59,558 nucleotides of DNA from Labrys wisconsinensis (lineage in GTDB: Bacteria > Pseudomonadota > Alphaproteobacteria > Rhizobiales > Labraceae): contig NZ_JAUSVX010000032.1 in the NCBI RefSeq assembly GCF_030814995.1, positions 1 through 59,558 of the forward strand, written 5' to 3'. Shown here one piece after another: positions 3,996 through 34,119 of this stretch (positions are counted from its first letter, which is position 1; each line of letters starts with the position of its first letter). Below the pieces are notes generated by a model. It did not search any database, had not been told where the DNA came from, and saw only the letters and a list, made by a program, of their open reading frames with translations. The translations under genes and the position numbers were made by a program.

Positions 3996-4052
3996 GGTGG
4001 TCGGTGGCGAAAGCATCGTGAGAAGGGCTGCGAAAGGCGCGCCATCCGCAAC

Positions 4053-4181
4053 CGTCATGGCCGGGCTTGACCCGGCCATCCACGCGAACGCCGATCGTGC
4101 CAGAGTGGACGCCACAATGTACGCCCAATGCGACAGAAACCTGTGATCGCGTGGATGGCCGGGTCAAGCCCGGCCATGACG
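4053..4181. repeat. REP-like element: perfect 34-bp inverted repeat
   Basis: Arms at 4053-4086 and 4148-4181 are exact reverse complements, separated by 61 bp. Each arm also holds its own hairpin, GGCCGGG-cttga-CCCGGCC. Sequences with CATGGCCGGGCTTGACCCGG are common intergenic repeats in Hyphomicrobiales. It fills most of the 286-bp gap between the GatD-like gene and the second kinase. It may be a REP-type repeat, an mRNA-stabilising structure or a terminator. Confidence 0.8.
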
Positions 4182-4281
4182 CGGCGGTGAGGGAGGAGGC
4201 TCGGTTGGCAAACGGGGCGGAACGCGGAACGACCGGTCGCCGGCCGATGACGGACTGCCCGGCATCAGCGAGCAAAGCACC

Positions 4282-14069: not shown

Positions 14070-14088
14070 CTTGGTGGAGCTGAGGGGA
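14070..14088. repeat. attL core: 19-bp copy of the tRNA-Ala 3' end
   Basis: The sequence CTTGGTGGAGCTGAGGGGA here is identical to 34042-34060, where it forms the 3' end (CCA, acceptor strand and start of the T arm) of tRNA-Ala. The flanking bases differ on both sides. It marks the left junction of a 19,972-bp unit and is the displaced 3' end of the original tRNA gene. Confidence 0.92.
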
Positions 14089-14152: not shown

Positions 14153-14186
14153 GGGTACGCATGAAGGGTACGTACCGGGGTACGCA
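14153..14186 (+). repeat. Left arm-type integrase repeats (three GGGTACGCA-like units)
   Basis: Three direct units, GGGTACGCA at 14153, GGGTACGTA at 14166 and GGGTACGCA at 14178, lie 65 bp inside attL and just before the integrase start. The 13- and 12-bp spacing is the same as in the triplet near attR (33947-33981). They are probably the arm sites bound by the integrase N-terminal domain. Confidence 0.75.
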
Positions 14187-14199
14187 GGGGGTGTCTGAG

Positions 14200-15573
14200 A
14201 TGGCAAGGCCGGCCGCTGCCGACACGCGATATCTGGAACAGAAGAATGGGAAGTGGCGGGTAACGCTCGCCGTCCCTCGCGAGCTTCAGGGCAAACTCGG
14301 GACCCGTCTCAAGCGCCCGCTGCACACCGACAGCCTCGCGGTCGCCAACCGGATCAAGTGGCAGGCGCTGGCGGAGCTGCGGGCGGTCATCGAGCATGCC
14401 CGCAACGTGACGGGCAAGGGCGCCATCATCCGGGAGGCCATCGAGCTGGCGGCGTATCGCTCACGAGCACGGGACCCCGAGGAGATTGCGAACCTAGACG
14501 ACGCCATTGTGGATCGAGCGATCGAGCTTCAGGGACCTGTCGTAGGCTCTGAGGAGGACGTGGACGGCGGCCCGGTGCCGATCTTCGATCCCGAGAAGGA
14601 GCGGGCGGCCTTAGAGTTCGCAGAGGTCGCCCAGGGCCGAGCAACGCCCATCGCCCTCTACCATCCCGACTACCTCAACCAGTCGATCAACAAGCGCCGC
14701 ACTAAGGCCGACGATGAGCGGTCCTTGCGGTTCCTCCTGGCGTGGTGCGAGCGGGAGCGGGTGCGGCCCACGTTGCAGGCGATAACCCGTAAGGTGGCGG
14801 CCCGCTTCATGGATGATCTGGGCGGGGTTGCCGGCGGGCAGAGCCCGGTGACCCTTCAGAAGTACGTGTCCCGCCTCTCTCGCTTCTGGCAATGGCTCGC
14901 GAAGCGTGACCACGTCGAGAGCAACCCATGGGCGGGCCTCAGGGTCGAGGCGAAGCCAACCCCGCATGACGAGCTAGAGCGGCCCTTCACGGATGCCGAG
15001 ATGCTCGCCCTCCTCAACGGCGCCGCGTCCCCCGAGATGCACGACCTTATGCGCATAGCGGCCCTCTCGGGGGCACGCTTGGATGTCATCGTGGACCTCA
15101 GGGTCAAGGACTGCGCGGGCGGCATGTTCGTCTTCAAGCCGCAGAAGAAGGAGACCGCGCCGCGGCAAGTCCCGATCCACTCGGAACTCGCGGCGATCAT
15201 CAAGAGGCGGGCCAAGGGGAAGGCCGCAGATGACGCCATGTTCCCAGAGTGGCCGGCCCCGAGAAAGGTGGGGTCCCAGCGTGAGCGGTCCTTCAAGGCG
15301 TCCAACGCCTTCACAGCGTATCGCCGGCAAGTGGGCGTTGATGATGTGGTGCCAGGTAAGCGCCGCTCCCTCGTCAACTTCCACTCGTTCCGGCGCTGGT
15401 TCATCACCAAGGCGGAGCAGGCGGACCAGGCTGAGGGGATCATAGCGGCCGTGGTGGGCCACAAGAGGAAGGGGATGACCCTGGGCAGATATTCGGCGGG
15501 GCCGCTGCTGGAACAGGCTAGGCGGTGTGTAGAAGCTGTGAGGTTGCCGCGGCAGCCTAGTGCCAAAGAATAG
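14200..15573 (+). CDS. int: Tyrosine recombinase, site-specific integrase of the element
   Basis: A 457-residue integrase. The catalytic set is complete: Arg in ALSGARLDVI (about R293), Lys in QKKETAPR (about K317), the HSFR box (H395, R398), His in VVGHKRKGM (H421) and the nucleophile Tyr in LGRYS (Y431). The N-terminal part reads as an arm-binding domain (YLEQKNGKWRVTLAVPRELQ) and a SAM-like core-binding region. I start it at 14200 behind AGGGGG; an ATG at 14161 is in frame but lies among the arm repeats. It should integrate and excise the element at tRNA-Ala. Confidence 0.92.
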   Translation: MARPAAADTRYLEQKNGKWRVTLAVPRELQGKLGTRLKRPLHTDSLAVANRIKWQALAELRAVIEHARNVTGKGAIIREAIELAAYRSRARDPEEIANLDDAIVDRAIELQGPVVGSEEDVDGGPVPIFDPEKERAALEFAEVAQGRATPIALYHPDYLNQSINKRRTKADDERSLRFLLAWCERERVRPTLQAITRKVAARFMDDLGGVAGGQSPVTLQKYVSRLSRFWQWLAKRDHVESNPWAGLRVEAKPTPHDELERPFTDAEMLALLNGAASPEMHDLMRIAALSGARLDVIVDLRVKDCAGGMFVFKPQKKETAPRQVPIHSELAAIIKRRAKGKAADDAMFPEWPAPRKVGSQRERSFKASNAFTAYRRQVGVDDVVPGKRRSLVNFHSFRRWFITKAEQADQAEGIIAAVVGHKRKGMTLGRYSAGPLLEQARRCVEAVRLPRQPSAKE

Positions 15574-18730: not shown

Positions 18731-19021
18731 TCAGCGGGCGGCTTCGTGGGCCGTCCGATAGGCGTAGAGATCGGCAATCGAGAGGGTGCCATCCCTCACC
18801 AAGGCCATGCATGGCTCGCCCGCGGTCGCATAGCCGTGCCCGCGGCAGTACGAGGCCAAGGCAATGAAGTACCACTCACGGTCCGCTTGGCTCATCCCGG
18901 AGAACGGTGGGGTCCGCGCGGCGATCCCGGCAGCGGCCAGCCCGAGGAGGAACCCAACGGCCACCGCAAGGGCGATCGGCACGGGCGGCCGGGAGAGGAA
19001 GCGGCGACCGACTAGAGCCAC
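18731..19021 (-). CDS. Small single-helix membrane protein
   Basis: A 96-residue protein starting with GTG at 19021, seven bases after a perfect GGAGGAG site. Its start overlaps the stop of the tyrosine recombinase gene by 10 bp. A membrane helix (PIALAVAVGFLLGLAAAGIAA) is followed by a short domain with two cysteines (YCRGHGYATAGEPC) that could form a disulfide outside the membrane. A role in lysis, exclusion or the envelope is possible; none can be shown. Confidence 0.6.
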   Translation of the reverse strand: MALVGRRFLSRPPVPIALAVAVGFLLGLAAAGIAARTPPFSGMSQADREWYFIALASYCRGHGYATAGEPCMALVRDGTLSIADLYAYRTAHEAAR

Positions 19022-20361
19022 CGCGCCATCTCCTCCGTGCCATACCCCCCGGTCAGCTTCAGGTACCCCATGGTCGTCCCCACGCTCCCATGCCTGAGGT
19101 ACGCCCTGGTCAGTTCCAGGGGCATCCCACGGTCCACATGCAGGTACCGCGCAGCACTCCTCCTGAGGGCCTTCAGGGTCGCCGTGGGGACGTCCTGTGC
19201 CCCGATGAACTCCCTGCACTCGGACCAGAGGTTGGCCAGCTTGCGGTACCCGATGGGGAACACGCGGTCCCCCGGGTGAGCCTCGGGGACGGCCTCGCGC
19301 CTCCTGACGATGATCAGGCAGGCCTCCTTGCCGAGCGGTAGGGCGGCCTGGGAGTTGGCCGTCTTGGTCCCCGGGGCCGTCATGGCCATCTTCTCGGGGA
19401 TCAACCTGCCGTCCGGCCCATGGTTGAACGTGATGTCCCGCCAGGTCAGCCTCAGGGTCTCCTCGACCCGCAGGCCGGTGTAGCAGGTCCACTCGATGTA
19501 ATCGGCGGTGTCCCCATAGTCGGCATCGGGGATGCCACGGAGCCACCCTAGGAGCCTCTCGCGTTCGGTCGGATTGAGCCACCATTTGAGCTGCTGGCGG
19601 CCCCTCGGGCGGCACCCTTGGACCGGGACCCCCATGAGATTGAGGATGGCGCAGCGGACCATGATGGTGCCCCTCGCGTACCCCGCACGGGTCCACAGGT
19701 CGACCAGCTCCCGGACGACTTCGGGGGTGACCTCGGGGAGGGTCGTCAGGCCCCGACTATGGAGGGCCTCGAGGACCATGTTGCCCTGGGACATGGACCG
19801 GTCGAAGGATCTGCGGTGGGCCCAATGGGTCTTGGCGACGCGGGTGAGGAGGCGATCAAGTTCGGTCTTCTCCCGCGCCGGGGTCTCCTCCTCCTGGGGG
19901 TCCACCGGCCGGGGCTTGGGGTACCGCTTCGGGGTGTAGGGGAGCGGCGGGCGGCAGCCCCTCACCGAGATGCCCAAGACGCTGAGAGCCGAGAGGCGGC
20001 GATGGATGGTCGAGGCCGCAAAGCCCTGCGCCTCCCAATACTCGGTGAGACCCCGGATGTGCTCGCTGGTCACCTCGGCCGGGTCCGTGACCCCGAAGAG
20101 GTCCTTCAGGTCTTGGACCGCGGCCCGAGCCTGGGCAATGCCGCCGCCCTTGGCAGTGCCACCCTGGGACCACCGGGCCACGAGGTCATCAAGCCCCTGA
20201 TCGAGGAGCGCGAGGGGCGCGGTGCCAACACCCCCGGTCTCATCCTCGCGGGGCCGCCGGATCAGCGGGAAGGGCAGCGGGGTCTCCCAGTCGGCGAACT
20301 CCGTGTCCGGCTCGTGGTCGGGCACGAGGTCGTCAATGGCGATGCGTAGGCCTTCCATCAT
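19012..20361 (-). CDS. Second tyrosine recombinase, with a duplicated N-terminal module
   Basis: A 449-residue recombinase. Catalytic residues: Arg in YTGLRVEETLRLTW (about R298), Lys near GTKTANSQAALPL (about K333), the ALRRSAARY box (R400, with Lys in place of the usual His at 397), His in LRHGSVGTT (H424) and Tyr in MGYLKL (Y433). Residues 88-142 and 203-251 repeat each other: EVT.E..R.L...W...G.A..TI..R...L...G..V.GCRP. Start chosen at 20361, behind GAGGAGAGC. It is unrelated in detail to the integrase at 14200. Confidence 0.85.
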   Translation of the reverse strand: MMEGLRIAIDDLVPDHEPDTEFADWETPLPFPLIRRPREDETGGVGTAPLALLDQGLDDLVARWSQGGTAKGGGIAQARAAVQDLKDLFGVTDPAEVTSEHIRGLTEYWEAQGFAASTIHRRLSALSVLGISVRGCRPPLPYTPKRYPKPRPVDPQEEETPAREKTELDRLLTRVAKTHWAHRRSFDRSMSQGNMVLEALHSRGLTTLPEVTPEVVRELVDLWTRAGYARGTIMVRCAILNLMGVPVQGCRPRGRQQLKWWLNPTERERLLGWLRGIPDADYGDTADYIEWTCYTGLRVEETLRLTWRDITFNHGPDGRLIPEKMAMTAPGTKTANSQAALPLGKEACLIIVRRREAVPEAHPGDRVFPIGYRKLANLWSECREFIGAQDVPTATLKALRRSAARYLHVDRGMPLELTRAYLRHGSVGTTMGYLKLTGGYGTEEMARWL

Positions 20362-20372
20362 GGCTGCTCTCC

Positions 20373-20741
20373 TCAACCCTTCATCTTCAGGATGGCCCGG
20401 ACCCCGGGGTCACTGCCGCCCGTTCCGTTCAAGAGCACCAGCTCGAAGCGCTCGCCGCGCTTGGCCGCAGGGGCCTCCGCGGTCCACTTCTTGAACTGGT
20501 CCCGCAGCTTGGTCCGCAGGTAGACCGTGGTCACCTTCTCGGGCTTGGCGCCGCGGTCCACGAAGTACTGGGCCGGGACCGGGAAACCGCGGGGCTTGCC
20601 ATCCTTCTCGATGTCCGCTGCGAGGTCGGACCACCGAGACCGGAAAGGCAAGGCGTTCGGGGTGGTGCGTTGAGTGTCCCCTGAGGGGATGGTCTCGAAG
20701 ACTATGCCCTCAAAGGGATAGTCGGGTTTGGCAGTAGGCAT
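20373..20741 (-). CDS. Small unknown protein preceding the second recombinase
   Basis: A 122-residue, lysine- and proline-rich soluble protein beginning MPTAKPDYPFEG, with a GGAG site upstream. The middle, VTTVYLRTKLRDQFKKWTAEAP, is strongly basic. It ends 12 bp before the recombinase start, so the two are very likely co-transcribed and the protein may assist or regulate recombination. It could also be a virion or structural accessory. I do not recognise the family. Confidence 0.55.
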   Translation of the reverse strand: MPTAKPDYPFEGIVFETIPSGDTQRTTPNALPFRSRWSDLAADIEKDGKPRGFPVPAQYFVDRGAKPEKVTTVYLRTKLRDQFKKWTAEAPAAKRGERFELVLLNGTGGSDPGVRAILKMKG

Positions 20742-20905: not shown

Positions 20906-23900
20906 CTATTTCTGCGAGGGAAGCTGCACGCTGGGCAGCCCGACCCCTTCGAGGATGTTGTTGAGGGCCTTGGTCTGGGGGATGGCCCCCTGGGGGTCCC
21001 TCTGCTGGGCGGCGTAGGCGGCTCGCACCTTCATCTCGTCCGCATAGAGGGCCTGCCGGACGTTGGGGTCCTGCCGCAGCACCTTCATGGCCTTGTCGTG
21101 GTAGGGGTTGATGACGGACCCGAGCATGTAGAGCTTGGTGCCCTTCAACCGAGCGGCCCCGTCCGGGGCATTGTGGTAGGCCGGGGTCTGCATCACCTTC
21201 GCCACTAGGTCCTTCAGCGCGGGGGCACCGGGAAGGTGGCCGGACAGCTCCTGAAGGCGGTCATAGGCGTTCCTGCCGTCGACCATGGTGACATCGCGCA
21301 GGTCTGCATCCTGGTGGTTCGGCAAGACCCCAGCGATGGACTTGCCATCATCGGTCTCCATGATCAGCCGCTCCATCTCCTGGTCGACGAATCCGGTGGA
21401 CGTGGAGCGCCATGCCTGCCGGACGTGCACCGGGTCGCCCCAGACGTCCCGGCGTGCGGGAAGGTCCGCTGAGAGGCCGGGCATGGTCGCGAGCACACGG
21501 TCCATGATGGACCTCGCGTCCCTCATGGTGTCGTCCACGGCCATCGTGTTGAACTGGCTGTATGCCCATTTGCCCGGCACGAGGTTGGCCGCCATGTTGC
21601 CGAGGAGGGCGCTTGTCTTAGCCGGCTGAGGGTCCATCACGGCGTCGAGCCCATTCGAGAGCCCGAGGAGATACGTCTTGTTGGCAATCTGCTTGGCGAG
21701 CGCGATGACCAACGCCGTGGCCGCCTTGTCGACCGCGCCACCCTCCGGGTGGTCAATGGCATCCCCGATGTCCGCTATGATCCCTAGAGGAATGGCGATG
21801 GGGTCCATTCGGCCGGCGAGCGCATCGTAGGTGACGGACCCATCGTCATTGTGGATGACCCTCGAATAGGGCTGCCACCCGGTGTCCATCAGGTCCCGCT
21901 TCGCCTTCCGGTCCGCCGGGCCACCCCCGGTGTAGCCGCCGCCGGCCACGATCGCAGCGCCCGCAAGGGTGTAGGCAAGGGAGAGGCCAAACTGCCCCCG
22001 AGCCTGGGCTCGGTTGAAGGCCCGCACGGCCGGCGTATCTCCGACCTTCCCGGCCATCCTCGCCCGGAAGTCGGCCTGAATGGCATTGAGGCCAGGCGTG
22101 AGGTTGAGCCCGTACCTGAGGATGTTGTCGACGGTCCGCACGAAGGGGACGATGAGGCGGGCGGTCGGGTGGTTCGCGACGTATCCCTGGACGGTCTTGC
22201 CAAGAGTGTTGGGGGCAAGCTCCTGCGAGAAGGTGGCGATCTGTGCCTCCTGCTTCGCGTCCATGTCTGTGGCTCGCCCCATGTCATCGAAGGCGCCGGC
22301 CACGCGGTCCTCGACAGTCTGCTTGATGAGGGCGGCCTTTGCGGCCCCCGTGATGCCCTGCTGCTCCGCGAGGGTCCGCGCCTCCATGTAGGCCTTGGCG
22401 GACACGAGAGAGCGATAGGTGATCACCTTCATGGTTTCGTCGGCGGCGCCGAGGAGCCGCGAGGGGATGCCATGGTAGGCCTTCCCGACCGTGAGAGCCC
22501 CGACGAGGCCGTTATAGATCACGTTCGGAACACTCGTCGGCGGCTTCCAGGAGAACAGCCCCGGAGTGCCTCGGTCGGTGGTCCGGTAAAGCTCTACGCT
22601 GTGCGGGGTGATGCGGCTGTTGGCGGCAATGAAGCTGTCGACGCCGGCCTTGAAACCGTCGACAAGGGAGGTCGTCATATAGGCGTACTGGCGGAGGCTC
22701 TGCTGCATGATGGGCAACCCGGCCTTGCCCATGAACGCGGCACCCACGATCCGCTCGAAGGGGCGGTGGGCCATCACAAAGCTGTTGGACAGGAAGTTGA
22801 CGACCTGGGTCCGCCAGCCGCCCACCAGGTTGTTCACGAAGATGAAGCTGGCGAGGTCCGTGAGCTTGGACCAGGTGGACGGCCGCACGATGGTCGGCAG
22901 GTTCTTCACGTTGCCCCTCGCGTTTGAGAGGAGCTGCGCCAGCATGTCCCCGTTCACCGCGCGGAGGGCTGCGATGTCGGCTGGGGTCGGCAGGAACTCG
23001 CTGCGGTTCCTTCGGACCGCCCGACCGGCGGCGGCCCGGATCGAATTGGCGTGGCCCATGGCCTTGGTGGCCGCCACCAAGTGCTGCTGGACGGTCTCAT
23101 GGGCCAGGTCGGCATTGCCGCCCCACCGCGCGAAGTCTCCGGCGACGATGGCCTTGGCCGCCACGGTGGCGTCCTGGAACATCCGGTTGGCCGCCAGATA
23201 GCCGGCTTCCATCTGGACCACCATCTCCCTGGCGCCGTTGCCGGCTTCTTGGAGCTTGGCCATCATCAGGGCCGGGTCGAGATTAAAGTCCTCCTTCCAC
23301 TGGGCGAGCCGGGCCTGGACGGTCGCGTCTTTCAGGACATCCCCGCCCTTCGCATTGGCGAGCCATCCGGTGTCATCCAGGGCCCGGGCGGCCTGCCTGA
23401 CGAAGGCGTCCACGTCATCCGGACTGCCCATCTTGTTGTATGGCACCGAGTTGGGCGAGGAAGCGAACTTGTGCCCGGCCTCCGTCGCCGCCTGCCAATC
23501 CATGCCCGCCGCGTGGAGGGCGTCCCAGTCCTTCTGGACCGCCGAGATGATGCCACGGACGGTGGCCTGATCGAACTTGGGGAGGTCCGCGCGAGTGCCC
23601 GGGGTCAGCCCCTCGGGGGTGGATGGGACCCCCGCCTCGCCCTGAGGACGTTCTCGTCCAGCAGGTACAGAGGGAGACTCAGGACGACTGCCACCATGCT
23701 CAGGTGCAGGGGCCCCGTCCAAAACCCGAGGAGGAACAGGAGCACCAGTGCCAGCATCAGCCGTGGGGACCACTTCGCCAGGCGGTCCATCATGTGCCTT
23801 CCCCTCTGCCGCATCGAGAAACTGCTTGGGGGTGACATCGGGCACCTCGGCCCCAAGGTCCGCCTTGACGGAAACTCGAGGCTTGGCCGCAGGTGCCCCA

Positions 23901-25231
23901 GGAGGAGAAGAGACCGCAGGCCCAATCTCGAAGGCCGGCTCGCTCATGTCCGCCTTGGAAATCAGCGGGAGCATCCCCCAGCGCTGGCCTTTGGCGTCCG
24001 CCATCATGCCCCGATCTACGGAAACGATGGGGATGGGCTTGCCCTCGACATAGATGGTGACCTTGCGGCCTGCATCGAGAGCCGCCTGCGCCTCCTGGGA
24101 GAGGGCATCCGAGGCCTGCCCGAGGTTGACTGCGCCATCGGGGCCCGTGAAGCGGGCTTTGAGTTCCGCTGCGGTCTCGGGCTTAGGAGGGGGCGGGATG
24201 GGGACCCCTTTGGGTTCACCCGCGAAGGCACCCTGGGCCGGCTCAACGGTCACAGGGCCACCCTCGGCCTGCACCTTCGGGGCCGGGACCCCCTGTGCCG
24301 TGGGCTGAGCCTGCTGGACTTCCTTGGTGGCCGCTTCGATGGCCGCCCTGTCGCCGGCACCGAGAGCCTTGAAGAGCCGCAGCGAAGCGACAAAGAGGCC
24401 AGCGCCGGCATCCATCCCGAGGCTCTCAAGGGTGTTCCTCAGGCGGCCCTCGGCGTCCGTCTCGCCGGGCTGATGGGCCAGGAGGCGGGTCACCCCGTTG
24501 TTCAAGAGGGGGTACTGGATGAGGAGGTTGCTCAGGCCTTCGGCATGGGGGTCGAACATGGTGTTGGCCACGGTGGCCGCCTTGACGGCCTCGGCGCCCA
24601 TGGAGGCCACCTTGGACCCCTCAATGGCATCACCCAGGGCGGTGACCCCACGGCCGACCCAAGGCAGGGCCTTCATGCCCGCCGTGAGCTTCCCCAGGCC
24701 CACCATGCCGAAGGCGAACTGCCCAACCGAGCGGGTGAAGCCGGCGATGGGTCCTGCCTCAGCAAGGATGGTCTTGGCCTGGGCCTCCGAGGCCTGCCGA
24801 AAGTCGGACTTCTGGTCCTCGGGGGTGGGACCAAAGAGGAAGTCATGGGCCTGGAAGAGATCCTCATCGAATGCCCCGCCGAGGGTCTGGACGATGCCAT
24901 TGACCCCCGCACCGAACCTCGCGGCATCGCCGAGGAAGCCGCGGTCTCTCCTCCTCCTGGCAGCATCGAGATTCGCCTGGATGGTCTCCTGAGGCATCAC
25001 GGGGGTCGGGGTGAGCTGGGGACCAATCGGCAGGCCACCCCTCATGTTGGTCCTCTGGATTACAGGGGTCTCGGGTGTCTGCGAGGCTGCCTCTTCGGCC
25101 TGCTGTTCCGCTATGGCCTGCTCAAGGATGGCACGTTGGAGAGCCGCATCGACCCCCGCGGTGTCGGGCGGAGAGGCGGAAGGAGTGGTCTGGTCCTGGG
25201 TGGACACTGTGGGTGACTTGGGGTCGGGCAT
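20906..25231 (-). CDS. Giant virion-type protein, probable podovirus-like ejection (internal virion) protein
   Basis: A 1441-residue protein. Residues 1-100 are low-complexity. Residues 110-290 are Gly/Ala helical (AGPIAGFTRSVGQFAFGMVGLG). Pro-rich linkers with small folded patches run to about 600. The helical C-terminal half has hydrophobic stretches (FVNNLVGGWRTQVVNFLSNS; LSLAYTLAGAAIVAGGGY) and a late RRDVWGDPV motif. This layout resembles large podoviral internal virion proteins that enter the host envelope during DNA ejection; I see no lytic transglycosylase domain. Start set at 25231 (MPDPKSP, AAGGA upstream); 25339 is possible. Confidence 0.6.
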   Translation of the reverse strand: MPDPKSPTVSTQDQTTPSASPPDTAGVDAALQRAILEQAIAEQQAEEAASQTPETPVIQRTNMRGGLPIGPQLTPTPVMPQETIQANLDAARRRRDRGFLGDAARFGAGVNGIVQTLGGAFDEDLFQAHDFLFGPTPEDQKSDFRQASEAQAKTILAEAGPIAGFTRSVGQFAFGMVGLGKLTAGMKALPWVGRGVTALGDAIEGSKVASMGAEAVKAATVANTMFDPHAEGLSNLLIQYPLLNNGVTRLLAHQPGETDAEGRLRNTLESLGMDAGAGLFVASLRLFKALGAGDRAAIEAATKEVQQAQPTAQGVPAPKVQAEGGPVTVEPAQGAFAGEPKGVPIPPPPKPETAAELKARFTGPDGAVNLGQASDALSQEAQAALDAGRKVTIYVEGKPIPIVSVDRGMMADAKGQRWGMLPLISKADMSEPAFEIGPAVSSPPGAPAAKPRVSVKADLGAEVPDVTPKQFLDAAEGKAHDGPPGEVVPTADAGTGAPVPPRVLDGAPAPEHGGSRPESPSVPAGRERPQGEAGVPSTPEGLTPGTRADLPKFDQATVRGIISAVQKDWDALHAAGMDWQAATEAGHKFASSPNSVPYNKMGSPDDVDAFVRQAARALDDTGWLANAKGGDVLKDATVQARLAQWKEDFNLDPALMMAKLQEAGNGAREMVVQMEAGYLAANRMFQDATVAAKAIVAGDFARWGGNADLAHETVQQHLVAATKAMGHANSIRAAAGRAVRRNRSEFLPTPADIAALRAVNGDMLAQLLSNARGNVKNLPTIVRPSTWSKLTDLASFIFVNNLVGGWRTQVVNFLSNSFVMAHRPFERIVGAAFMGKAGLPIMQQSLRQYAYMTTSLVDGFKAGVDSFIAANSRITPHSVELYRTTDRGTPGLFSWKPPTSVPNVIYNGLVGALTVGKAYHGIPSRLLGAADETMKVITYRSLVSAKAYMEARTLAEQQGITGAAKAALIKQTVEDRVAGAFDDMGRATDMDAKQEAQIATFSQELAPNTLGKTVQGYVANHPTARLIVPFVRTVDNILRYGLNLTPGLNAIQADFRARMAGKVGDTPAVRAFNRAQARGQFGLSLAYTLAGAAIVAGGGYTGGGPADRKAKRDLMDTGWQPYSRVIHNDDGSVTYDALAGRMDPIAIPLGIIADIGDAIDHPEGGAVDKAATALVIALAKQIANKTYLLGLSNGLDAVMDPQPAKTSALLGNMAANLVPGKWAYSQFNTMAVDDTMRDARSIMDRVLATMPGLSADLPARRDVWGDPVHVRQAWRSTSTGFVDQEMERLIMETDDGKSIAGVLPNHQDADLRDVTMVDGRNAYDRLQELSGHLPGAPALKDLVAKVMQTPAYHNAPDGAARLKGTKLYMLGSVINPYHDKAMKVLRQDPNVRQALYADEMKVRAAYAAQQRDPQGAIPQTKALNNILEGVGLPSVQLPSQK
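23605..23793 (-). CDS. Overprinted 62-residue two-helix membrane protein inside the giant gene
   Basis: This out-of-frame ORF starts ATGATG at 23793 behind an AGGGGAAGG site and reads MMDRLAKWSPR, then two hydrophobic helices (LMLALVLLFLLGFWT; LSMVAVVLSLPLYLL) and a basic tail. In this frame the codons end in G or C as expected, whereas the giant frame here uses many T-ending Pro, Ala, Gly and Val codons and encodes only a Pro-rich linker. This suggests that the small frame is under selection. It could be a holin-like or exclusion protein. Confidence 0.5.
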   Translation of the reverse strand: MMDRLAKWSPRLMLALVLLFLLGFWTGPLHLSMVAVVLSLPLYLLDENVLRARRGSHPPPRG

Positions 25232-25637
25232 GGGGTGGTCCTTGGGTGGATGGGGTGGGGAGGCTTGGGGTGGGTCTGAGGGAGGCCTTGTGGTTCTCGG
25301 GGGGGGGGCTTGGGTTGATCCCCGAGTAAGGGTTGACATTCCCCTCAGTGTTGGGGCATATGAGTGGGACATAAGGGTGTACTTGGTCAGTTGATGGTGG
25401 GGCTAGGACACGAGTACCCTCCGGTCAGGCATGATGAGATCTCCCAGGGTGCTTGGTGAGAGACATAGGAAAGCGAAGGCTGGCCCGTGAGGGGCACCCC
25501 AAAGACTTACAACAGACCAGCTTTAACCTATCTCAGCGGGCCGTCAAGGTGGTCCCCGATGAGATGTGGATGATTGGGTCTTCTCTCCTCTTTCTCTCTC
25601 AGTCCGTGCTGGCGGCGTAAGGCCCCTAGAGGCCCCC
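25232..25637. promoter_or_regulatory. Leader region of the giant gene with a candidate promoter
   Basis: This is a 406-bp gap. On the minus strand TTGACG (25547-25542) and TAAAGC (25525-25520) with a 16-bp spacer are a plausible promoter for the giant gene. A plus-strand TTGACA lies at 25333 without a good -10. A G-rich run is at about 25300-25310. An imperfect hairpin with GGCGTA/TACGCC arms at 25614-25643 overlaps the stop of the polymerase-like gene and may end that operon. Confidence 0.35.
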
Positions 25638-27008
25638 CTACGCCTTTATGTGGGCCATAACTTCTGGCTGTGATTTCAATGAGATAGGCAGGCGGTGACC
25701 CGTAATGGCCTCCGCGGCGTCGCCCATCACCTTGGCTGTAAGGTCGGCCTTGGACCTCGCGACCATCAGTCCGTCGTGCATCGGCAGGGCTGTAACGCCA
25801 GCGTCGACTAGGCGGAGCAGTGCGGCCACGAGGATTTGACTCTCGGTGAACATCAGCCCCAGGCCGCCGCCGCTCTCAAAGACATGACGGATCGGCGTGT
25901 GGGCTTCGAGTATTTTCGACCTGATCCAGGCCCCGGATGCGTTGGGCCCGAAGTAATCTCTTGCTTCTTTGGGCATGCGAGATAGCGGAGTGGATCGAAA
26001 GAACATGGCGTTGACCACCTTCTTCGCGCCTTCGCGGAGCTTTGGCCCCGGCGCAAATCCAAAGACATCCGCATAGAGGTCCCCGGCTGGCGGGGCGAGG
26101 CCGGCCTGGACATACGCGAGGCGCAAGAACATCGAGCTGAAGTCCAAATCAGCGATGGACTCCCCGTCAATGCGAATGGCCATGCGGTCCATGCTGGAAA
26201 GGCCTTGCCACCAGCCACCGAATAAGCGACCGCAGAGGTCGAACCGCGGTGCGGTCTCGCCTTGGAGAAGCTTGAAGTGCCGCCGGAGTTCACGGTGGGT
26301 GAAGACCCCCATCCGAACAGTATCGTCGGCGAGGAGGTCCATTTGCGCCGAGGCGAGGTGGTGGTTGATCCGGTGCATTTCGCCCCGAAAGCGGACGGTC
26401 TCCTCCGTGTCGTCGTAGTCGACAAGCTCAGTCTCGCGAGTGTCGGCGACAAAGTCTCGAACTGTGCGGCTCAGTCGAATAACCTCTCCCCCGGAGGCGC
26501 GACCAAAGTATTCTGGGCGCAGCCAGGAGGGCTTCCACACGGATGGCGTTTGGACATTGAATAGATCACCCGCCGTGACACGGCTAGCGACACCTCTTTG
26601 TGTTGACTTTCGGAGTGTGCAGACCGGAGTGGCGCTTCGCTTCACATCGGACAGCGTCTCAAGGACATGAGTTAGCTGGCCAAAACCCTTCGGGTCATAT
26701 CGCGGACTGAGCTTCTGCTTGACCGATCGGAGGCTGACGGCGACGGATGCTGGCTCTCTGCCCGAAGCGACCACGAAGGCGAGATTCGTAAGGATGGCAC
26801 GGATGATCCGCTCGATATTGGTGTTGTCGCGAGCTTTGCGGCGCCTCTGCCGCCTCTCGTTCAAATCAAAGGTGAGCGCCAGGTTCTCGCCAAGCACCTC
26901 TATTATCCGGGAGTTGGTTGTAAGCCAGGGGTCGAACACCAGCGGTGACCGTTCAAGATATGCGTCCTCACTTAGCTGCCTCTGATCACTCACGAGTTCG
27001 CTCCGCAT
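25638..27008 (-). CDS. Compact family A DNA polymerase-like protein
   Basis: A 456-residue protein with the three palm/fingers signatures of family A polymerases. Motif A is D289-F-S-S-M-F-L-R296 (Pol I DYSQIELR), followed by GDLYADV where Pol I has DIH. The O-helix pattern is R325-x3-K329-x7-F337 (Pol I R754, K758, Y766). Motif C is MHDG, with H411 and D412 (Pol I VHDE). A CGRLFGG...LSSMD segment before motif A recalls the Pol I TGRLSS region. The N-terminal 250 residues show no 3'-5' exonuclease motif. It is the last gene of a three-gene operon. Active polymerase, primase-like or RNA polymerase-like use cannot be decided. Confidence 0.65.
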   Translation of the reverse strand: MRSELVSDQRQLSEDAYLERSPLVFDPWLTTNSRIIEVLGENLALTFDLNERRQRRRKARDNTNIERIIRAILTNLAFVVASGREPASVAVSLRSVKQKLSPRYDPKGFGQLTHVLETLSDVKRSATPVCTLRKSTQRGVASRVTAGDLFNVQTPSVWKPSWLRPEYFGRASGGEVIRLSRTVRDFVADTRETELVDYDDTEETVRFRGEMHRINHHLASAQMDLLADDTVRMGVFTHRELRRHFKLLQGETAPRFDLCGRLFGGWWQGLSSMDRMAIRIDGESIADLDFSSMFLRLAYVQAGLAPPAGDLYADVFGFAPGPKLREGAKKVVNAMFFRSTPLSRMPKEARDYFGPNASGAWIRSKILEAHTPIRHVFESGGGLGLMFTESQILVAALLRLVDAGVTALPMHDGLMVARSKADLTAKVMGDAAEAITGHRLPISLKSQPEVMAHIKA

Positions 27009-27009
27009 C

Positions 27010-27792
27010 TTAGCGACGGCCCCTAGGCCGTTCGGCAGGCCGCAGGTTCGGACCCTTTGACTTCGGGAATGCCGGTGGTGGGCCGGGCGGCCGAGGACCC
27101 GCCATCGCGATCTTCAGGGCCACCACGGGCTCCACGTGATACTCGTCCACCCACTCGCACTGCTCCTCGATCATCCGCCCGAGGTACCGCAAGGCCAGCC
27201 CGGATGATCGGGGGTAGCGGTGATAGCCGCAGTCCGTGTGGTATCCCGAAGCTAACCGGTGGGCGGCCTTTGCGACCTGGACCCGCCGATACTCGCCAGG
27301 CTCCCCGCCGGGCCCGATCGGGTCCTCCGCCACCGCGGCGGCGACCGCGAGGAAAACAGTGAGAAGCTGCTCGGGGGGCACCTCGGCCCGCCGGAGCCGC
27401 GCAAGGGCTGCTCGGGCCTTGTCGCGAGGCGGCATGATCAGCACGTCCACCACCCTCTCGACCGGACCCGCTCTTTGCATGAGACTGTCGAGGGCGCTCA
27501 TGGTCAGCTTGATCCACTTATCCTCAGGGTGCTCCCGCAGATACTTCTCGGCAGCCCGCCTATATGGGCGCAGCTCGGCAGCCCGGTAGGTGTTCTTCCA
27601 GTAGCTGCCGTGGCGGTTTTTGAACTGGACGTGATATCGGCAATGGAATTGCGATAGCCCGCGGCCCTCTCCTGCCTGTGGAGGCCTGCCGCAGCCGGGA
27701 ATGCAGCAGTGCGGCATGGCGGCGCGGCCCTGGGCTTCTGCCTTTGATCGGACCCGGGCAGCGGCCCGCTTGTGCTCGGTGAGGCTCACCAT
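27010..27792 (-). CDS. Unknown protein with N-terminal Cys/His cluster, polymerase operon
   Basis: A 260-residue protein. Residues 26-55 contain CCIPGCGRP, then FHCRYH, a likely zinc-binding knuckle. A basic segment (FKNRHGSYWKNTYRAAELRPYRRAAEKYL) follows, then helical repeats, and a Pro/Arg-rich tail. DNA binding is plausible. It overlaps the gene before it by 7 bp and ends one base before the polymerase-like start, so the three products are made together. It may be an origin-binding or accessory replication factor, by inference only. Confidence 0.6.
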   Translation of the reverse strand: MVSLTEHKRAAARVRSKAEAQGRAAMPHCCIPGCGRPPQAGEGRGLSQFHCRYHVQFKNRHGSYWKNTYRAAELRPYRRAAEKYLREHPEDKWIKLTMSALDSLMQRAGPVERVVDVLIMPPRDKARAALARLRRAEVPPEQLLTVFLAVAAAVAEDPIGPGGEPGEYRRVQVAKAAHRLASGYHTDCGYHRYPRSSGLALRYLGRMIEEQCEWVDEYHVEPVVALKIAMAGPRPPGPPPAFPKSKGPNLRPAERPRGRR

Positions 27793-28337
27793 TTGTCCTT
27801 CGCCTCAGCCTGCTTACGGAGGAAGTCGGGGTCCTCCTTGGGGCCCCAAGGGTTTTCGTCCGGGTCGCCTGGTGCCGGCTCCGAGATGCCGCGTCGGCTC
27901 CGGCTGGCCATAGTCCGAAGGTTTGCGAGGACTACCGCATCCTCGCTGCCCCTTACGGGCACGGCGGCCTCCACCTTGATCTGCTGAGATTCAATAACCT
28001 CCCATAAGCTGCGGGCCTCATCCCTGTACGCCTCTGGCTTGCGCTTAAACCCGTCGCGAGCAGCCTCCGCCAGCCGACCGTGCGAGAACAATTCGGCTGA
28101 GGCAGACAGGGGCACTAGAAAGCGAATGGTGCTGCCGGCTTGTGTCCTCGCGGCGAAGTCGACGAAGAACAGGAGGTAAGCGAGGTAGAGCGTACAGCCG
28201 CCGTCTCGTCGGTACTCGATCAGCCTGCGGTGTCCGAATGCGCCCCCCTCTCGTGCCTGCGATGCGATGAAGACGCTTGGCGAGAAGGCGATGCGCTTTT
28301 CGCTCCCGGCGACATACACCGTGATTGCTGCTGGCAT
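27786..28337 (-). CDS. Unknown protein, first gene of the polymerase operon
   Basis: A 183-residue protein starting MPAAITVYVAGSEKR at 28337, ten codons inside the open frame. The N-terminal half looks like a beta-alpha fold (TVYVAGSEKRIAFSPSVFIA; CTLYLAYLLFFVDFAAR); the C-terminal part is charged. The VYVAGS opening slightly recalls RNase H-like folds, but the catalytic Asp is absent, so I do not assign that. An AT-rich 230-bp region upstream probably carries the operon promoter. Confidence 0.55.
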   Translation of the reverse strand: MPAAITVYVAGSEKRIAFSPSVFIASQAREGGAFGHRRLIEYRRDGGCTLYLAYLLFFVDFAARTQAGSTIRFLVPLSASAELFSHGRLAEAARDGFKRKPEAYRDEARSLWEVIESQQIKVEAAVPVRGSEDAVVLANLRTMASRSRRGISEPAPGDPDENPWGPKEDPDFLRKQAEAKDKW

Positions 28338-28566
28338 GCGAGGCTCCAAGCTGGAACAGGGCGGCACAGCTTCGTGCTCGCTCCTAAACAGTGCGACCGC
28401 ACTGGCGCTCTTACAATCCCCTAAAATTGCCGAATTGGCATTTAACGGCGAGAAAGTTCGTCAAATCTTGGCAATCAGTGGCCAGTTTTCTTTGCGGAAT
28501 GACCTATGAGAGGGCTATAAGGACTAAAAATGCTAAATTTGGTGGGCTATAGGCTGTGCTGCGCGT

Positions 28567-29211
28567 CTAGCCCTCGCCAGTCTCCCAGGCGTCCAGCGCC
28601 TTCTCGGCCTTCGCCGGGTCCTCTTTGATCCGTAGAACCGTCTGCCTGCTCAGCCCCGTTGTCCGTGCGATATCGGAGGTGCCCGCCGTCCCTGCCTGTA
28701 TAAGGGCCCTGACAGCCGCCAGCGTCTCCCGGGTGTACGTCGGCTTGCGACCCAGATATCGCCCCTCCTGCTCCTTCGCGTGCTCGATGCCGGCCCGCTG
28801 CGCCTCCCTGGTCGCCTCGGCCTGTGCTTGGGACAGAGCCGCCATGAAGCCGATGAGGGCGTCTCGCACGGCCTGTTGCATCGGGTCCTTCGTCGCCCCG
28901 TCGAACACCATGTTGTGGATTACGGTGCGGATTACGACGCCCCGCCGCATGAACTCCCGGATCGCGTCGCAAACGTCCTGATAGTTGCGGCCCAAGCGAT
29001 CCACCCAGCGAACCACGAGGGTGTCCCCGGCGCGAAGCTTGTCATAGAGCCGCTTCCCCTCGGGCCGCTCGATCAGGCGGGTTGCCACCCCGGAGATTCC
29101 GTGATCGGCGATGATCTCATCGATAGCGAACCCGGCCGCCTCCGCCTGGGAACGCTGGTGGTCAATCGTCTGGCCGGCGGTCGAGACGCGGGCGTACAAG
29201 ATAGTTGCCAT
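28567..29211 (-). CDS. Serine recombinase (resolvase/invertase type)
   Basis: A 214-residue small serine recombinase. The catalytic domain starts MATILYARVSTAGQ with the nucleophile Ser at residue 10. RWVDRLGRN and the arginine-rich ATREAQRAGIEHAKEQ long helix follow, and a C-terminal helix-turn-helix (TSDIARTTGLSRQTVLRI). Length and order match Hin/Tn3 resolvase enzymes. The start at 29211 is supported by a TATAAT box 40 bp upstream. It could resolve multimers of the element or invert a segment. Confidence 0.9.
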   Translation of the reverse strand: MATILYARVSTAGQTIDHQRSQAEAAGFAIDEIIADHGISGVATRLIERPEGKRLYDKLRAGDTLVVRWVDRLGRNYQDVCDAIREFMRRGVVIRTVIHNMVFDGATKDPMQQAVRDALIGFMAALSQAQAEATREAQRAGIEHAKEQEGRYLGRKPTYTRETLAAVRALIQAGTAGTSDIARTTGLSRQTVLRIKEDPAKAEKALDAWETGEG

Positions 29212-29225
29212 GAAGCCGGCGGCTC

Positions 29226-29256
29226 CCTGTCCGTTAGGGTGAGGCGCCCCATTATA
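29226..29256 (-). promoter_or_regulatory. Serine recombinase promoter and operator-like repeat
   Basis: On the minus strand a perfect TATAAT (29256-29251) has only a weak -35. The transcript should begin near 29244. Directly there lies ACCCTAACGGACAGG (29240-29226), an exact 15-bp match, in opposite orientation, to 31630-31644 in the operator region of the small-gene operon. A repressor bound here would block the recombinase promoter. Confidence 0.55.
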
Positions 29257-29420
29257 GACAGGTCCTCTCCCCCCGGTAGATCGCTCAGGGGCAGCCCTTG
29301 TGGGCGACGTGGGCATGGCGATTGATCCTTTCGGTGTGGTGCCGGTGCTTGACTGAAAGCGCTTCGCCAGCACCCCGGGCCGACCCGCGGGGTGCTGGCC
29401 AAAAGCTCTCGATGAGCGGC

Positions 29421-29702
29421 TCATGTCGCCAAGGCGTCATCCAGCTCCGCGATGGCCGCCGTCTCAGCGCCGCCGGGTGGCCCCTCACTCACCATGACCT
29501 CGTCATAGGCGCTCAGGACCAATTCCGCCTCCCGTCCCTCAGGGCAGGCCCCAAGCTCCAACTCCAAGTACCCGGCCTCCTCCCCTTGGAGCAGCGCGGA
29601 GAGGACACGGCCGGGGCCGTCATTGCGGGTGATGAGGATGGCTGTGCCGCGGGCAAAGGATTGCACGCTGTAGCGGCCGGACTGGCATATGGTGGTGCAC
29701 AT
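29421..29702 (-). CDS. Small unknown protein, end of the small-gene operon
   Basis: A 93-residue soluble protein, MCTTICQSGRYSVQSFARG, with an acidic C-terminal half (EGREAELVLSAYDEVMVSEG). No family is recognised. It starts 5 bp after the stop of the previous gene and is the last member of the minus-strand chain of tiny genes, ending 210 bp before the serine recombinase start. Confidence 0.55.
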   Translation of the reverse strand: MCTTICQSGRYSVQSFARGTAILITRNDGPGRVLSALLQGEEAGYLELELGACPEGREAELVLSAYDEVMVSEGPPGGAETAAIAELDDALAT

Positions 29703-32075: not shown

Positions 32076-32143
32076 ACGGGGGGAAAGTCCCGCGCCGCTC
32101 CCACATGATGGGGTCTCATATAAGTGACCCCTGCTTAGTCGGG
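32076..32143 (+). repeat. Imperfect direct repeat, copy 2
   Basis: This copy begins ACGGGGGGAAAGTCCCGCGC, contains ACATGATGGGGTCTC and GTGACCCCTGCTTAGTCGGG, and is partner to 31871-31937. It runs a few bases into the 3' end of the DUF4238 gene. Possible roles are iterons, regulatory sites or a remnant duplication. The rest of the gap 31692-32134 shows nothing else I can support. Confidence 0.6.
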
Positions 32144-33067
32144 CGCTGAGGGCGGCCCATCGATAGGGAATACGGCGCTAAGGGCTGTCGTTGGCATCCC
32201 ACGATACTGAGGGTTCTCCGAGAAGACTTTCCTTGCGAACGAAAAATCCGCAGACTGTGAGTAAATGGCCGCTGACGACCATGAACATTGCAGATAATTG
32301 AGGTTTTCGACATAGGGAGCAATCGCACGAATACCAATCCCCCGGACAAGAGAGACATACAAGCCGCGATGCTTGATGATGTAATCCGCCATCCAACCGT
32401 CGTCTCGCGGCCCTGTTGATTTCATTATCTCTTCATATGTCGAAATTATAAGCGCACTGGTTGCCGGGCATGGCATGTATAAAGCTGCCTTGGGCGACAG
32501 CGGGAGAAACGCTTCTACCCCAGGCACGTCAAAGCCGAGGTTACTGCCATCAGAAGGTTGCCTTGTGCGTTGAAGAACCACTGGGTTATCGCCTAGGTAG
32601 AAAACGTCGTCACCTTCAATTGTCATGACGACCCAATGCCGCCTCTCAATCATATCGGCAAGTAGCGCTGAACTCCGCCACATTTGTTCCATGAGTTGCG
32701 CAAACTGCTCGGGCGAAGGGTTATTGACCATTCCCCTTTGAAAAGCGTCCGTCCGAAAACTTTGAGTGGCAATGAGACGAGCGACAGAAATCCTCTGTTG
32801 CTTGGTCAGACCAGCGACGGAGCGCGTCCGTATGATTTCTCTGATCACCGGAGCGGCCTTGGTTTCGATCTTCTCAAACCGATCCTCGAAGGAAACGCTC
32901 ACGCCATTGATGACATGGTCGTAAATCGCCGGACCAGCCGCCGCGTACTTCGGCGGAGGCTTTGTGATTTGGTCCGACAGCACGTCCAGTCGGAAAACCC
33001 GTCCGTCCTTATCGGCGAAATTCTTGACCAGGAACTTCGATACCCAGTGTTGATTTTCGGGGGACAT
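32135..33067 (-). CDS. DUF4238 domain-containing protein
   Basis: A 310-residue soluble protein. The N-terminus, NQHWVSKFLVKNFADKDGRVF, and the later GDNPVVL segment and PLSPKAAL stretch fit the DUF4238 family, whose members begin with a conserved His and SKF/LLKNF pattern. Activity is not established; such genes are common in mobile regions. Start set at 33067 because similarity begins there, although the frame is open far upstream. It lies in a minus-strand pair with the small gene at 33112. Confidence 0.75.
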   Translation of the reverse strand: MSPENQHWVSKFLVKNFADKDGRVFRLDVLSDQITKPPPKYAAAGPAIYDHVINGVSVSFEDRFEKIETKAAPVIREIIRTRSVAGLTKQQRISVARLIATQSFRTDAFQRGMVNNPSPEQFAQLMEQMWRSSALLADMIERRHWVVMTIEGDDVFYLGDNPVVLQRTRQPSDGSNLGFDVPGVEAFLPLSPKAALYMPCPATSALIISTYEEIMKSTGPRDDGWMADYIIKHRGLYVSLVRGIGIRAIAPYVENLNYLQCSWSSAAIYSQSADFSFARKVFSENPQYRGMPTTALSAVFPIDGPPSAPD

Positions 33068-33111
33068 CGGGACAAGGGGCGAGGATTGGGAACACAGAAG
33101 TTGGCTCACTA

Positions 33112-33375
33112 TTACACTAACACCAACTCCCCCGGCACCTCGCCGGCTCTCCCCAAGATAACCGCATCCTCGAAGTCCCCCAACGCCGGGTCCCCACTTC
33201 GAGAAAACACCAGGACCCCCGCCTTGCCTGCCGCGAGCCGCCGCATGAGGCTCAACGCCCCGTGCTCGCTGCGGGCCTCTATGGGGTCCTGAGGTACAAG
33301 CTCGCCGTCCTCGTCTCGGACGAAGGGTTGGACCACATAGTAGGTGATCGCCCTGCCTGCTGCGGCACTGGCCAT
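33112..33375 (-). CDS. Small unknown protein
   Basis: An 87-residue protein, MASAAAGRAITYYVVQPFVRDEDGELV, with a central EARSEHGALSLMRRLAAGKAGVLVFSRSGD and a short acidic end. It reads as a compact alpha/beta domain of the kind found in rhizobial mobile elements. It lies 44 bp upstream of the DUF4238 gene and may be co-transcribed. Function unknown. Confidence 0.6.
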   Translation of the reverse strand: MASAAAGRAITYYVVQPFVRDEDGELVPQDPIEARSEHGALSLMRRLAAGKAGVLVFSRSGDPALGDFEDAVILGRAGEVPGELVLV

Positions 33376-33467
33376 GGGGCTCCTCCCATCTGCTCATTGA
33401 CTGCCGGGACTAACGGTAGCACAACGGGAACGGAAAGAGAACAAGGTGAGCTTGGTAAGGCGAGGCG

Positions 33468-34041: not shown

Positions 34042-34119
<78 letters not shown>

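What the first reader, a model, noticed from the sequence alone, without database searches (positions are those of the whole stretch)
25638..28337. Three-gene operon ending in a compact family A polymerase-like protein
Seen: the last protein (456 residues) has motif A D289-FSSMFLR-296, the O-helix spacing R325-x3-K329-x7-F337 and motif C MHDG (H411-D412), in Pol I order, plus a GRL...LSS segment before motif A. Motif A to B is about 40 residues and B to C about 83, much shorter than in Pol I. No exonuclease motif is visible. The other two proteins are unknown; one has a Cys/His cluster and a basic segment. Genes overlap by 7 bp or sit 1 bp apart. Inference: a self-contained replication or primer-extension module of a mobile element, not matching a system I know.
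Basis: partly seen in the sequence, partly recalled or inferred. Interest (0 to 1): 0.85.

Follow-up and report, generated by a model that had tools for sequence, protein, structure and literature searches.

The report
Compact island polymerase with two partners
A 20-kb mobile island inserted at a tRNA gene carries a small, Pol I-like nucleic-acid polymerase of a widespread but little-studied family, side by side with a zinc-finger protein and an apparently inactive RNase H-like protein, which together look like a private DNA-copying or DNA-starting kit of the island.

Summary
The three overlapping genes are real. The last (25638-27008, -) is a compact family A polymerase. In 79 of 79 aligned homologues the DX2GR arginine, motif A Asp289, motif B Arg325 and Lys329, and motif C His411-Asp412 are invariant. 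One of three profile comparisons places all of them on Pol I motifs A, B and C; the other two align motif C only. Of 100 shuffled profiles, none scores as high.

It is homologous to AUR84708, the published model protein of the phage group divPolA2, which has a predicted palm domain, and it shares several TV-Pol features. It sits in a 20-kb element bounded by a 19-bp repeat of a tRNA-Ala end.

What I did not find in the papers searched is its company. A zinc-finger protein lies within 1.5 kb on the same strand in 54 of 80 genomic loci. The first gene is an RNase H-fold protein without catalytic residues; some relatives carry an intact RNase HI instead. Best reading: a replication or priming module of integrative islands. 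The mechanism is inferred. No structure could be predicted.

The parts
25638..27008 (-). 456-aa compact family A polymerase (divPolA2 / phrog_4756 family); R261 of DX2GR, D289 (motif A), D310/Y312, R325/K329 (motif B), H411-D412 (motif C)
26142..26144 (-). codon of D289, motif A catalytic Asp
   Evidence: invariant 79 of 79; aligned to the Pol I motif A Asp by the profile of A2; position computed
25773..25778 (-). codons of H411-D412, motif C
   Evidence: invariant 79 of 79; aligned to Pol I motif C; position computed
27010..27792 (-). 260-aa zinc-finger partner (C29, C34, C51, H54 and R60-H61-G62, then a ~200-residue C-terminal part)
   Evidence: homologue on the same strand within 1.5 kb of the polymerase in 54 of 80 genomic loci; ligands conserved; co-diverges with the polymerase, Mantel r 0.52 in 57 loci
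27786..28367 (-). 193-aa RNase H-fold protein lacking the four catalytic carboxylates (likely ATG start at 28337)
   Evidence: 42% identical to L038, which matches an RNase HI profile at E 1.3e-7; two relatives over the Pfam RNase_H cut-off; residues compared. The window protein itself has no Pfam hit
28567..29424 (-). serine recombinase (resolvase/invertase)
   Evidence: Pfam Resolvase 1.4e-27; a relative within 5 kb of the polymerase, either strand, in 50 of 68 loci
14070..14088 (+). left attachment-like repeat (19 bp, exact)
34042..34060 (+). right attachment-like repeat, at the 3' end of tRNA-Ala
34044..34119 (-). tRNA-Ala (CGC), inferred integration target
14161..15573 (+). tyrosine integrase next to the left repeat
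19012..20376 (-). second tyrosine recombinase
20906..25372 (-). 1488-aa internal-virion-protein-like gene, downstream neighbour of the polymerase
   Evidence: phrog_6651 1.8e-35; homologues in L038/L002, L076, L088
17183..17824 (+). PD-T7-4 anti-phage protein (cargo of the island)
   Evidence: PADLOC 4.5e-80

Best explanation
Supported by the calls: the last gene encodes a shortened family A polymerase with its catalytic residues in place, of the divPolA2 family. It lies in line with a conserved zinc-finger gene and an RNase H-fold gene, inside a ~20-kb integrated element with its own recombinases. Inferred: the trio starts or extends DNA synthesis for the element. After excision (or at a gapped recombination intermediate), the zinc-finger protein holds the single-stranded template or origin, as MP does for CcPol or zinc domains do for DnaG and PrimPol. 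The polymerase makes or extends a primer with relaxed sugar choice, because the steric-gate Glu of Pol I is absent. The RNase H-fold protein handles the RNA-DNA hybrid, by cutting in elements that keep an intact RNase HI and only by binding in elements such as this one.
For: Polymerase identity: invariant catalytic set in 79 of 79 rows. hhalign of the 28-row family profile (A2) against Pol I aligns residues 275-445 with 641-867 and puts D289, R325/K329 and H411-D412 on their Pol I counterparts (E 0.009). Reversed Pol I gave E 0.66 with the same profile; 0 of 100 shuffled profiles scored as high (31.4 against at most 28.7). Homology to published divPolA2 AUR84708: E 1.2e-20 with the A3 profile, which holds no phage-record member; same PHROG. 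Sugar selection: Glu stands at the Pol I steric-gate position in 0 of 79 and 0 of 28 rows. Partners: zinc-finger gene on the same strand within 1.5 kb in 54 of 80 loci, 42 upstream and 12 downstream, none on the opposite strand. Pol and zinc-finger distances correlate (r 0.54) more than pol and serine recombinase (r 0.18) in the same 30 loci. RNase H-fold gene on the same strand within 1.5 kb in 17 of 68 loci at E up to 0.2, 11 of 68 at E up to 0.001; four of these 11 helped to build the profile (L044, L074, L085, L112). Four loci have an RNase HI with the full catalytic set. Context: tRNA-end repeats, integrase, serine recombinase. Precedent: CcPol-MP primase of SCC elements (PMC7581432, abstract and passages).
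Against: No structure could be predicted, so the fold rests on motifs, a weak profile match and a published model of a distant homologue. The profile match is modest: the best of 100 shuffles reached E 0.02, and two other family profiles aligned only the motif C end (E 0.017 and 0.0048). No helicase family was recognised among the recurrent neighbours except type I restriction HsdR, unlike CcPol-MP and helicase-linked TV-Pols; two small clusters stayed unidentified. Most loci (51 of 68) have no detected RNase H-fold neighbour, and 20 of 68 lack the zinc-finger gene within 1.5 kb on the same strand, so neither is obligatory. The two phage loci searched (L033, L243) have neither partner, and of four plasmid loci only L036 has them. 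No origin, excision or replication was observed, and the empty site could not be shown because the left flank has no match in the 4 other genomes of the genus.
Confidence: 0.5

Rival explanations
1. A gap-filling or repair polymerase that mends the element's ends or host lesions, with no role in starting replication.
For: divPolA2 in phages stands in variable neighbourhoods beside a separate replicative polymerase, and its authors suggest repair (PMC11348598 section 13). Linked to recombinases. No helicase recognised among recurrent neighbours apart from HsdR.
Against: Repeated linkage to a zinc-finger protein and RNase H-fold proteins and loss of the steric gate fit priming or RNA handling better than plain gap repair (inference).
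Confidence: 0.22
2. A single-subunit RNA polymerase that transcribes element genes.
For: The divPolA2 authors report mitochondrial and N4 RNA polymerases among structural matches. Glu at the steric gate in 0 of 79 and 0 of 28 rows. The 'GRLFGG' segment resembles the T7 RNAP DX2GR loop (recalled).
Against: The O-helix position equivalent to the T7 RNAP tyrosine (recalled) is Phe in 58 and Tyr in 1 of 79. No profile match to T7 RNAP (E 0.56 and 0.099), though that test is weak. Linkage to RNase H would be odd for a transcriptase.
Confidence: 0.12
3. An anti-phage or conflict module carried by a defence island.
For: The island carries a PD-T7-4 protein; a type I restriction subunit lies near the polymerase in 8 of 84 loci.
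Against: No PADLOC match for any of the three proteins at E up to 0.01. Similar proteins occur in 245 of 50,697 phage records. The most frequent neighbours are recombinases and the zinc-finger gene.
Confidence: 0.1
4. Not a polymerase: the motifs are coincidental or the enzyme is dead.
For: No Pfam, NCBIfam or PDB sequence match; the profile match to Pol I is modest.
Against: Seven spaced signature residues invariant in 79 of 79, profile alignment in register, published palm model of a homologue.
Confidence: 0.04

Closest known systems
divPolA2 (divergent phage family A polymerase; Virol J 2024, PMC11348598, section 13 and passages seen)
   Same: Homologous to the published representative; same PHROG (phrog_4756); no exonuclease found; palm motifs; unplaced N-terminal region.
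   Different: Described there in phages, in variable neighbourhoods. Here it is in a chromosomal island, linked to a zinc-finger protein and an RNase H-fold protein. Motif C is HDG here; the AUR84708 representative reads FD.
TV-Pol family (Iyer et al. 2008, PMC2579912; parts 1 and 2 of 3 read)
   Same: Minimal family A core, no nuclease, conserved hairpin Arg, two palm Asp, fingers Asp plus RxxxK, resolvase/integrase neighbourhoods, many alphaproteobacteria.
   Different: D5-like helicase linkage not seen. RNase H (other than a transposase fold) and a zinc-finger partner gene were not mentioned in the text read or found by term search. Sequence link to the candidate Ma-LMM01 gene is weak.
CcPol-MP / PolA-SSB primases (Bebel 2020, PMC7581432, abstract and passages; Rice 2023, PMC10061031, parts 1 and 2 of 5)
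   Same: Mobile-element operon pairing a shortened family A polymerase with a small partner, near recombinases.
   Different: Partner here has a zinc-finger pattern and is not shown to be an OB fold; no helicase gene in the operon; no Bacillota among the 80 relatives listed.
ColE1-type initiation (host RNase H plus Pol I; recalled)
   Same: Same two kinds of enzyme, RNase H fold and Pol I-like.
   Different: Here encoded together by the element, with the RNase H-fold member often lacking catalytic residues.

Membership tests
divPolA2 | Sequence homology to the published representative AUR84708 | tested here: met
   A3 profile (no phage-record rows) hits it at 1.2e-20 among 186 frames; both match phrog_4756 (1.8e-91 and 3.9e-19)
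divPolA2 | Palm domain with motifs A, B, C in a predicted structure | not testable with these tools
   Prediction switched off; motifs present by sequence
divPolA2 | No 3' exonuclease domain | tested here: met
   Window protein: no Pfam or NCBIfam family. No nuclease among the 25 families shown of 27 for the 79 members
TV-Pol | Absolutely conserved hairpin Arg, two palm Asp, fingers Asp plus RxxxK | tested here: met
   R261, D289, D412, R325, K329 79 of 79; D310 78 of 79. That R261 is the hairpin Arg is inferred
TV-Pol | Resolvase, integrase or transposase neighbourhood, no nuclease fusion | tested here: met
   Serine recombinase within 5 kb in 50 of 68 loci; integrase cluster in 37 of 84 loci, 26 of them within 4.5 kb (identity of its representative)
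TV-Pol | Sequence link to a named TV-Pol | tested here: inconclusive
   Only the Ma-LMM01 gene MAP_030 was tried, my choice by its position beside transposases: different PHROG; hhalign E 0.048, 0.12 and 0.48; first of 642 frames with one of three profiles, E 0.15
TV-Pol | Bihelical coiled-coil thumb; all-helical N-terminal domain in a subset | not tested
   No structure or secondary-structure prediction was run
CcPol-MP primase | OB-fold partner protein | not testable with these tools
   The 260-aa partner has a zinc-finger pattern and no Pfam family; fold not predicted
CcPol-MP primase | Helicase gene in the same operon | tested here: not met
   No helicase in the window operon; no helicase among clusters recurring in 5 or more of 84 loci except HsdR (two of six clusters not identified). 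Two weak helicase-module hits among A3 members (D5_N 0.011, DUF3987 0.024)
Housekeeping Pol I (PF00476) | Match to the DNA_pol_A model | tested here: not met
   No hit for the window protein; not among the 25 families shown of 27 for the 79 members; the host has a separate Pol I
T7-like RNA polymerase | Profile similarity above decoys | tested here: inconclusive
   hhalign E 0.56 and 0.099; Pol I against T7 RNAP also fails (0.53), so the test is weak
RNase HI (193-aa protein) | RNase H fold by sequence | tested here: met
   Through its homologue L038, RNase HI profile 1.3e-7, and two relatives over the Pfam cut-off; indirect, the window protein itself has no Pfam hit
RNase HI (193-aa protein) | Catalytic D-E-D-D residues | tested here: not met
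   None of the four retained in the window protein in the alignment

The most novel reading that the evidence does not exclude
A three-component initiation machine not described before: a family A polymerase without a steric gate, guided by a zinc-finger partner and by an RNase H-fold protein (active in some elements, a hybrid-reading pseudo-enzyme in others). It would let integrative islands start their own replication from an RNA or de novo primer without a helicase of their own, a private counterpart of ColE1-type initiation spread through alphaproteobacterial islands.
Probability: 0.2. Interest if true: 0.82.

Novelty: new variant of a known kind. Interest (0 to 1): 0.57.

Why it matters
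The family is widespread (20 of 249 genomes of the host's order; 25 of 398 of the phylum; 245 of 50,697 phage records similar to one member). The annotated copies I saw are labelled 'hypothetical protein'. Linking bacterial-island members to divPolA2 gives the phage protein a genetic context. The repeated zinc-finger and RNase H-fold partners make a direct biochemical test possible: does the pair or trio prime DNA synthesis? If so it would be a further primase derived from a family A polymerase.

Tried and rejected
Pfam, NCBIfam and PDB sequence searches found no named polymerase family for the protein, and none is among the 25 families shown of 27 for its relatives. A profile search of viral contigs with alignment A2 had no conserved stretch. 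HMM searches against 642 frames holding Pol I, T7 and Ma-LMM01 proteins gave only marginal hits: Pol I frames ranked first with two of three profiles (best E 0.0089), MAP_030 of Ma-LMM01 with the third (E 0.15). T7 RNAP and MAP_030 profiles did not align convincingly. The empty integration site could not be shown: the left flank has no match in the 4 other genomes of the genus, and sequence further left lies elsewhere in them. No sigma-70-like promoter was found in 25300-28700. Repeats around the intergenic region 28368-28566 are short and mostly imperfect. A defence role was considered and ranked low. Paper searches for related work.
Full report
**What is in the sequence.** Upstream lies a serine recombinase (28567-29424; Pfam Resolvase 1.4e-27). 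Downstream lies a 1488-aa gene related to phage internal virion proteins (phrog_6651, 1.8e-35).

**The element.** A 19-bp sequence occurs exactly twice in the window, at 14070-14088 and 34042-34060; shuffles give a mean of 0.02 matches with up to 3 mismatches. The right copy is the 3' end of tRNA-Ala (34044-34119). A tyrosine integrase (14161-15573) stands next to the left copy. G+C is 0.59-0.68 between the repeats, against 0.67-0.75 in the rest of the window. This is the layout of a ~20-kb tRNA-integrated island. In one other genome of the genus parts of the tRNA region occur twice about 7 kb apart (G503), so the site may be a hot spot. The empty site could not be shown.

**The 456-aa protein is a family A polymerase.** Pfam and NCBIfam give nothing, but PHROG phrog_4756 (unknown function) matches at 3.9e-19. 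A genome scan found 165 relatives, of which the tool kept 80. I aligned 78 of these 80 with the window protein; the two left out were split or partial. Invariant in 79 of 79 are R243, G260, R261, L262, W267, D289, Y312, R325, K329, E389, S390, L408, H411 and D412. Position by position: D+1 is Tyr/Phe in 78 of 79, D+3 is Gln in 46, D+7 is Arg in 67, which recalls DYSQIELR of Pol I, and position 310 is Asp in 78. The distances between motifs are short: A to K 35-50 and K to D 79-92 residues, against 53 and 124 in Pol I.

I compared family profiles with 30 Pol I sequences by hhalign. The profile of 28 diverse members aligned residues 275-445 with Pol I 641-867 at E 0.009 and placed D289, R325/K329 and H411-D412 on the corresponding Pol I residues. 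Two other family profiles (79 rows, and 104 rows) aligned only the motif C end (E 0.017 and 0.0048). Reversed Pol I gave E 0.66 with the first profile. Of 100 shuffled Pol I profiles 0 reached the observed score, but the margin is modest: 31.4 against 28.7, best shuffle E 0.02. The same method does not link Pol I to T7 RNAP (E 0.53), so it is insensitive and a miss means little.

**It belongs to a published family.** Section 13 of PMC11348598 (read) describes divPolA2, a divergent family A polymerase of barbaviruses and other phages, with a predicted palm, no exonuclease and an N-terminal domain of unknown kind; the authors consider repair or RNA synthesis. I fetched part of the genome of its model protein AUR84708. 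That protein matches phrog_4756 at 1.8e-91. My profile built from the genome-scan loci finds it at 1.2e-20 among 186 frames, and a broader profile that includes one phage member at 2.7e-30. AUR84708 has the motif A Asp and the motif B Arg and Lys; at motif C it reads FD, not HD. A tblastn search with another phage member found 245 of 50,697 phage records, 115 of them Rheinheimera phages.

The older TV-Pol family (PMC2579912; parts 1 and 2 of 3 read, passages) has the same minimal motifs and resolvase/integrase neighbourhoods in many alphaproteobacteria. My only sequence test, against the candidate Ma-LMM01 gene, was inconclusive.

**Partner 1, zinc finger.** Homologues of the 260-aa protein were found in 62 of 110 polymerase loci, a set with some near-duplicates. 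In the 80 genome-scan loci the gene lies on the polymerase strand within 1.5 kb in 54: 42 upstream and 12 downstream, none on the other strand. The weakest is L117 (1.4 kb away, E 4.5e-4). The C-x4-C-x16-C-x2-H ligands are each kept in 55-57 of 59 sequences. Polymerase and zinc-finger distances correlate (r 0.52, 57 loci; r 0.54 in 30 common loci), more than polymerase and serine recombinase (r 0.17, 49 loci; r 0.18 in the same 30). The two therefore appear to travel and diverge together.

**Partner 2, RNase H fold.** The 193-aa protein is 42% identical to a gene in the same position in L038. Iterated search within the set of upstream neighbours reaches further genes in that position; over all frames the window protein alone reaches 5 hits. 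Of seven such genes scanned, two exceed the Pfam RNase_H cut-off (6.8e-8 and 3.1e-6), two match it more weakly (3.6e-4, and L038 at 0.19) and three do not. A profile made of the host RNase HI and five RNase HI-like sequences from the loci finds L038 at 1.3e-7 in 11,744 frames. In the window protein none of the four catalytic carboxylates is retained. Four loci (L074, L085, L044, and L080 on the opposite strand) carry an RNase HI with all four, and L112 one that looks disrupted. On the same strand within 1.5 kb of the polymerase, an RNase H-fold gene was counted in 17 of 68 loci with enough flank at E up to 0.2. At E up to 0.001 it is 11 of 68 (L038, L042, L044, L047, L057, L074, L085, L093, L106, L112, L114), four of which helped to build the profile. 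Other hits in that list were L080, further fragments in L112 and the likely duplicates L002 and L018.

**Other neighbours.** Clustering of neighbours in 84 loci gave six clusters in 5 or more loci: a serine recombinase in 51, the zinc finger in 44, a tyrosine integrase in 37, a type I restriction subunit in 8, and two in 6 and 5 loci that were not identified. No other helicase was recognised, which separates this from CcPol-MP modules. One plasmid copy (Thioclava) has a DEAD/DEAH-family gene beside a DNA methyltransferase gene nearby. The two phage loci searched have neither partner.

**How it may work.** The Glu that in Pol I excludes ribonucleotides (recalled) occupies its place in 0 of 79 and 0 of 28 rows, so relaxed sugar choice is plausible. 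CcPol needs its small partner MP to start synthesis without a primer (abstract), and other primases use zinc-binding or helical partners for the template (passage). By analogy the zinc-finger protein would hold the template, the polymerase would make or extend the primer, and the RNase H-fold protein would cut or bind the RNA-DNA hybrid. These steps are inferences. Repair, transcription and defence are the rivals.

**Novelty.** The polymerase family is known; the annotated plasmid copies I saw were called hypothetical proteins. I found no paper in the library that links it to a zinc-finger or RNase H partner, but most subscription papers and all supplements were out of reach. I therefore file it as a new variant of a known kind.

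Noticed in passing
window 17183-17824 (+): DUF4145 protein that matches the anti-phage family PD-T7-4 at 4.5e-80, carried inside the island.
   Followed up: no
window 20906-25372 (-); L038/L002, L076, L088: A 1488-aa protein like a phage internal virion protein lies next to the polymerase; the island ORFs scanned gave no capsid or large-terminase match. Homologues stand near the polymerase in three other distinct loci.
   Followed up: partly
window 14070-14088 and 34042-34060: Exact 19-bp repeat at a tRNA-Ala end that bounds a ~20-kb lower-G+C element.
   Followed up: yes
window about 4039-4190: A short repeated sequence with many matches across the host genome (the 4.5-kb query has 123 matches there, most of those listed in this stretch), probably a dispersed palindromic repeat.
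   Followed up: no
L074 4958-5533, L085 6964-7446, L112 7249-7875: RNase HI genes (apparently disrupted in L112) directly beside relatives of the polymerase, where other loci carry RNase H-fold proteins without the catalytic residues.
   Followed up: partly
G503 contig C58 3082-3175 and 10271-10361: Parts of the tRNA-Ala region occur twice about 7 kb apart in another genome of the genus, which suggests a second island at the same site.
   Followed up: no
window 32135-33397 (-): DUF4238 protein (Pfam 4.3e-26) near the right end of the island, with only a weak PADLOC match (0.0082).
   Followed up: no
L037 2500-3146: A second, partial relative of the polymerase about 4 kb from the main copy on the Paracoccus versutus plasmid.
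   Followed up: no
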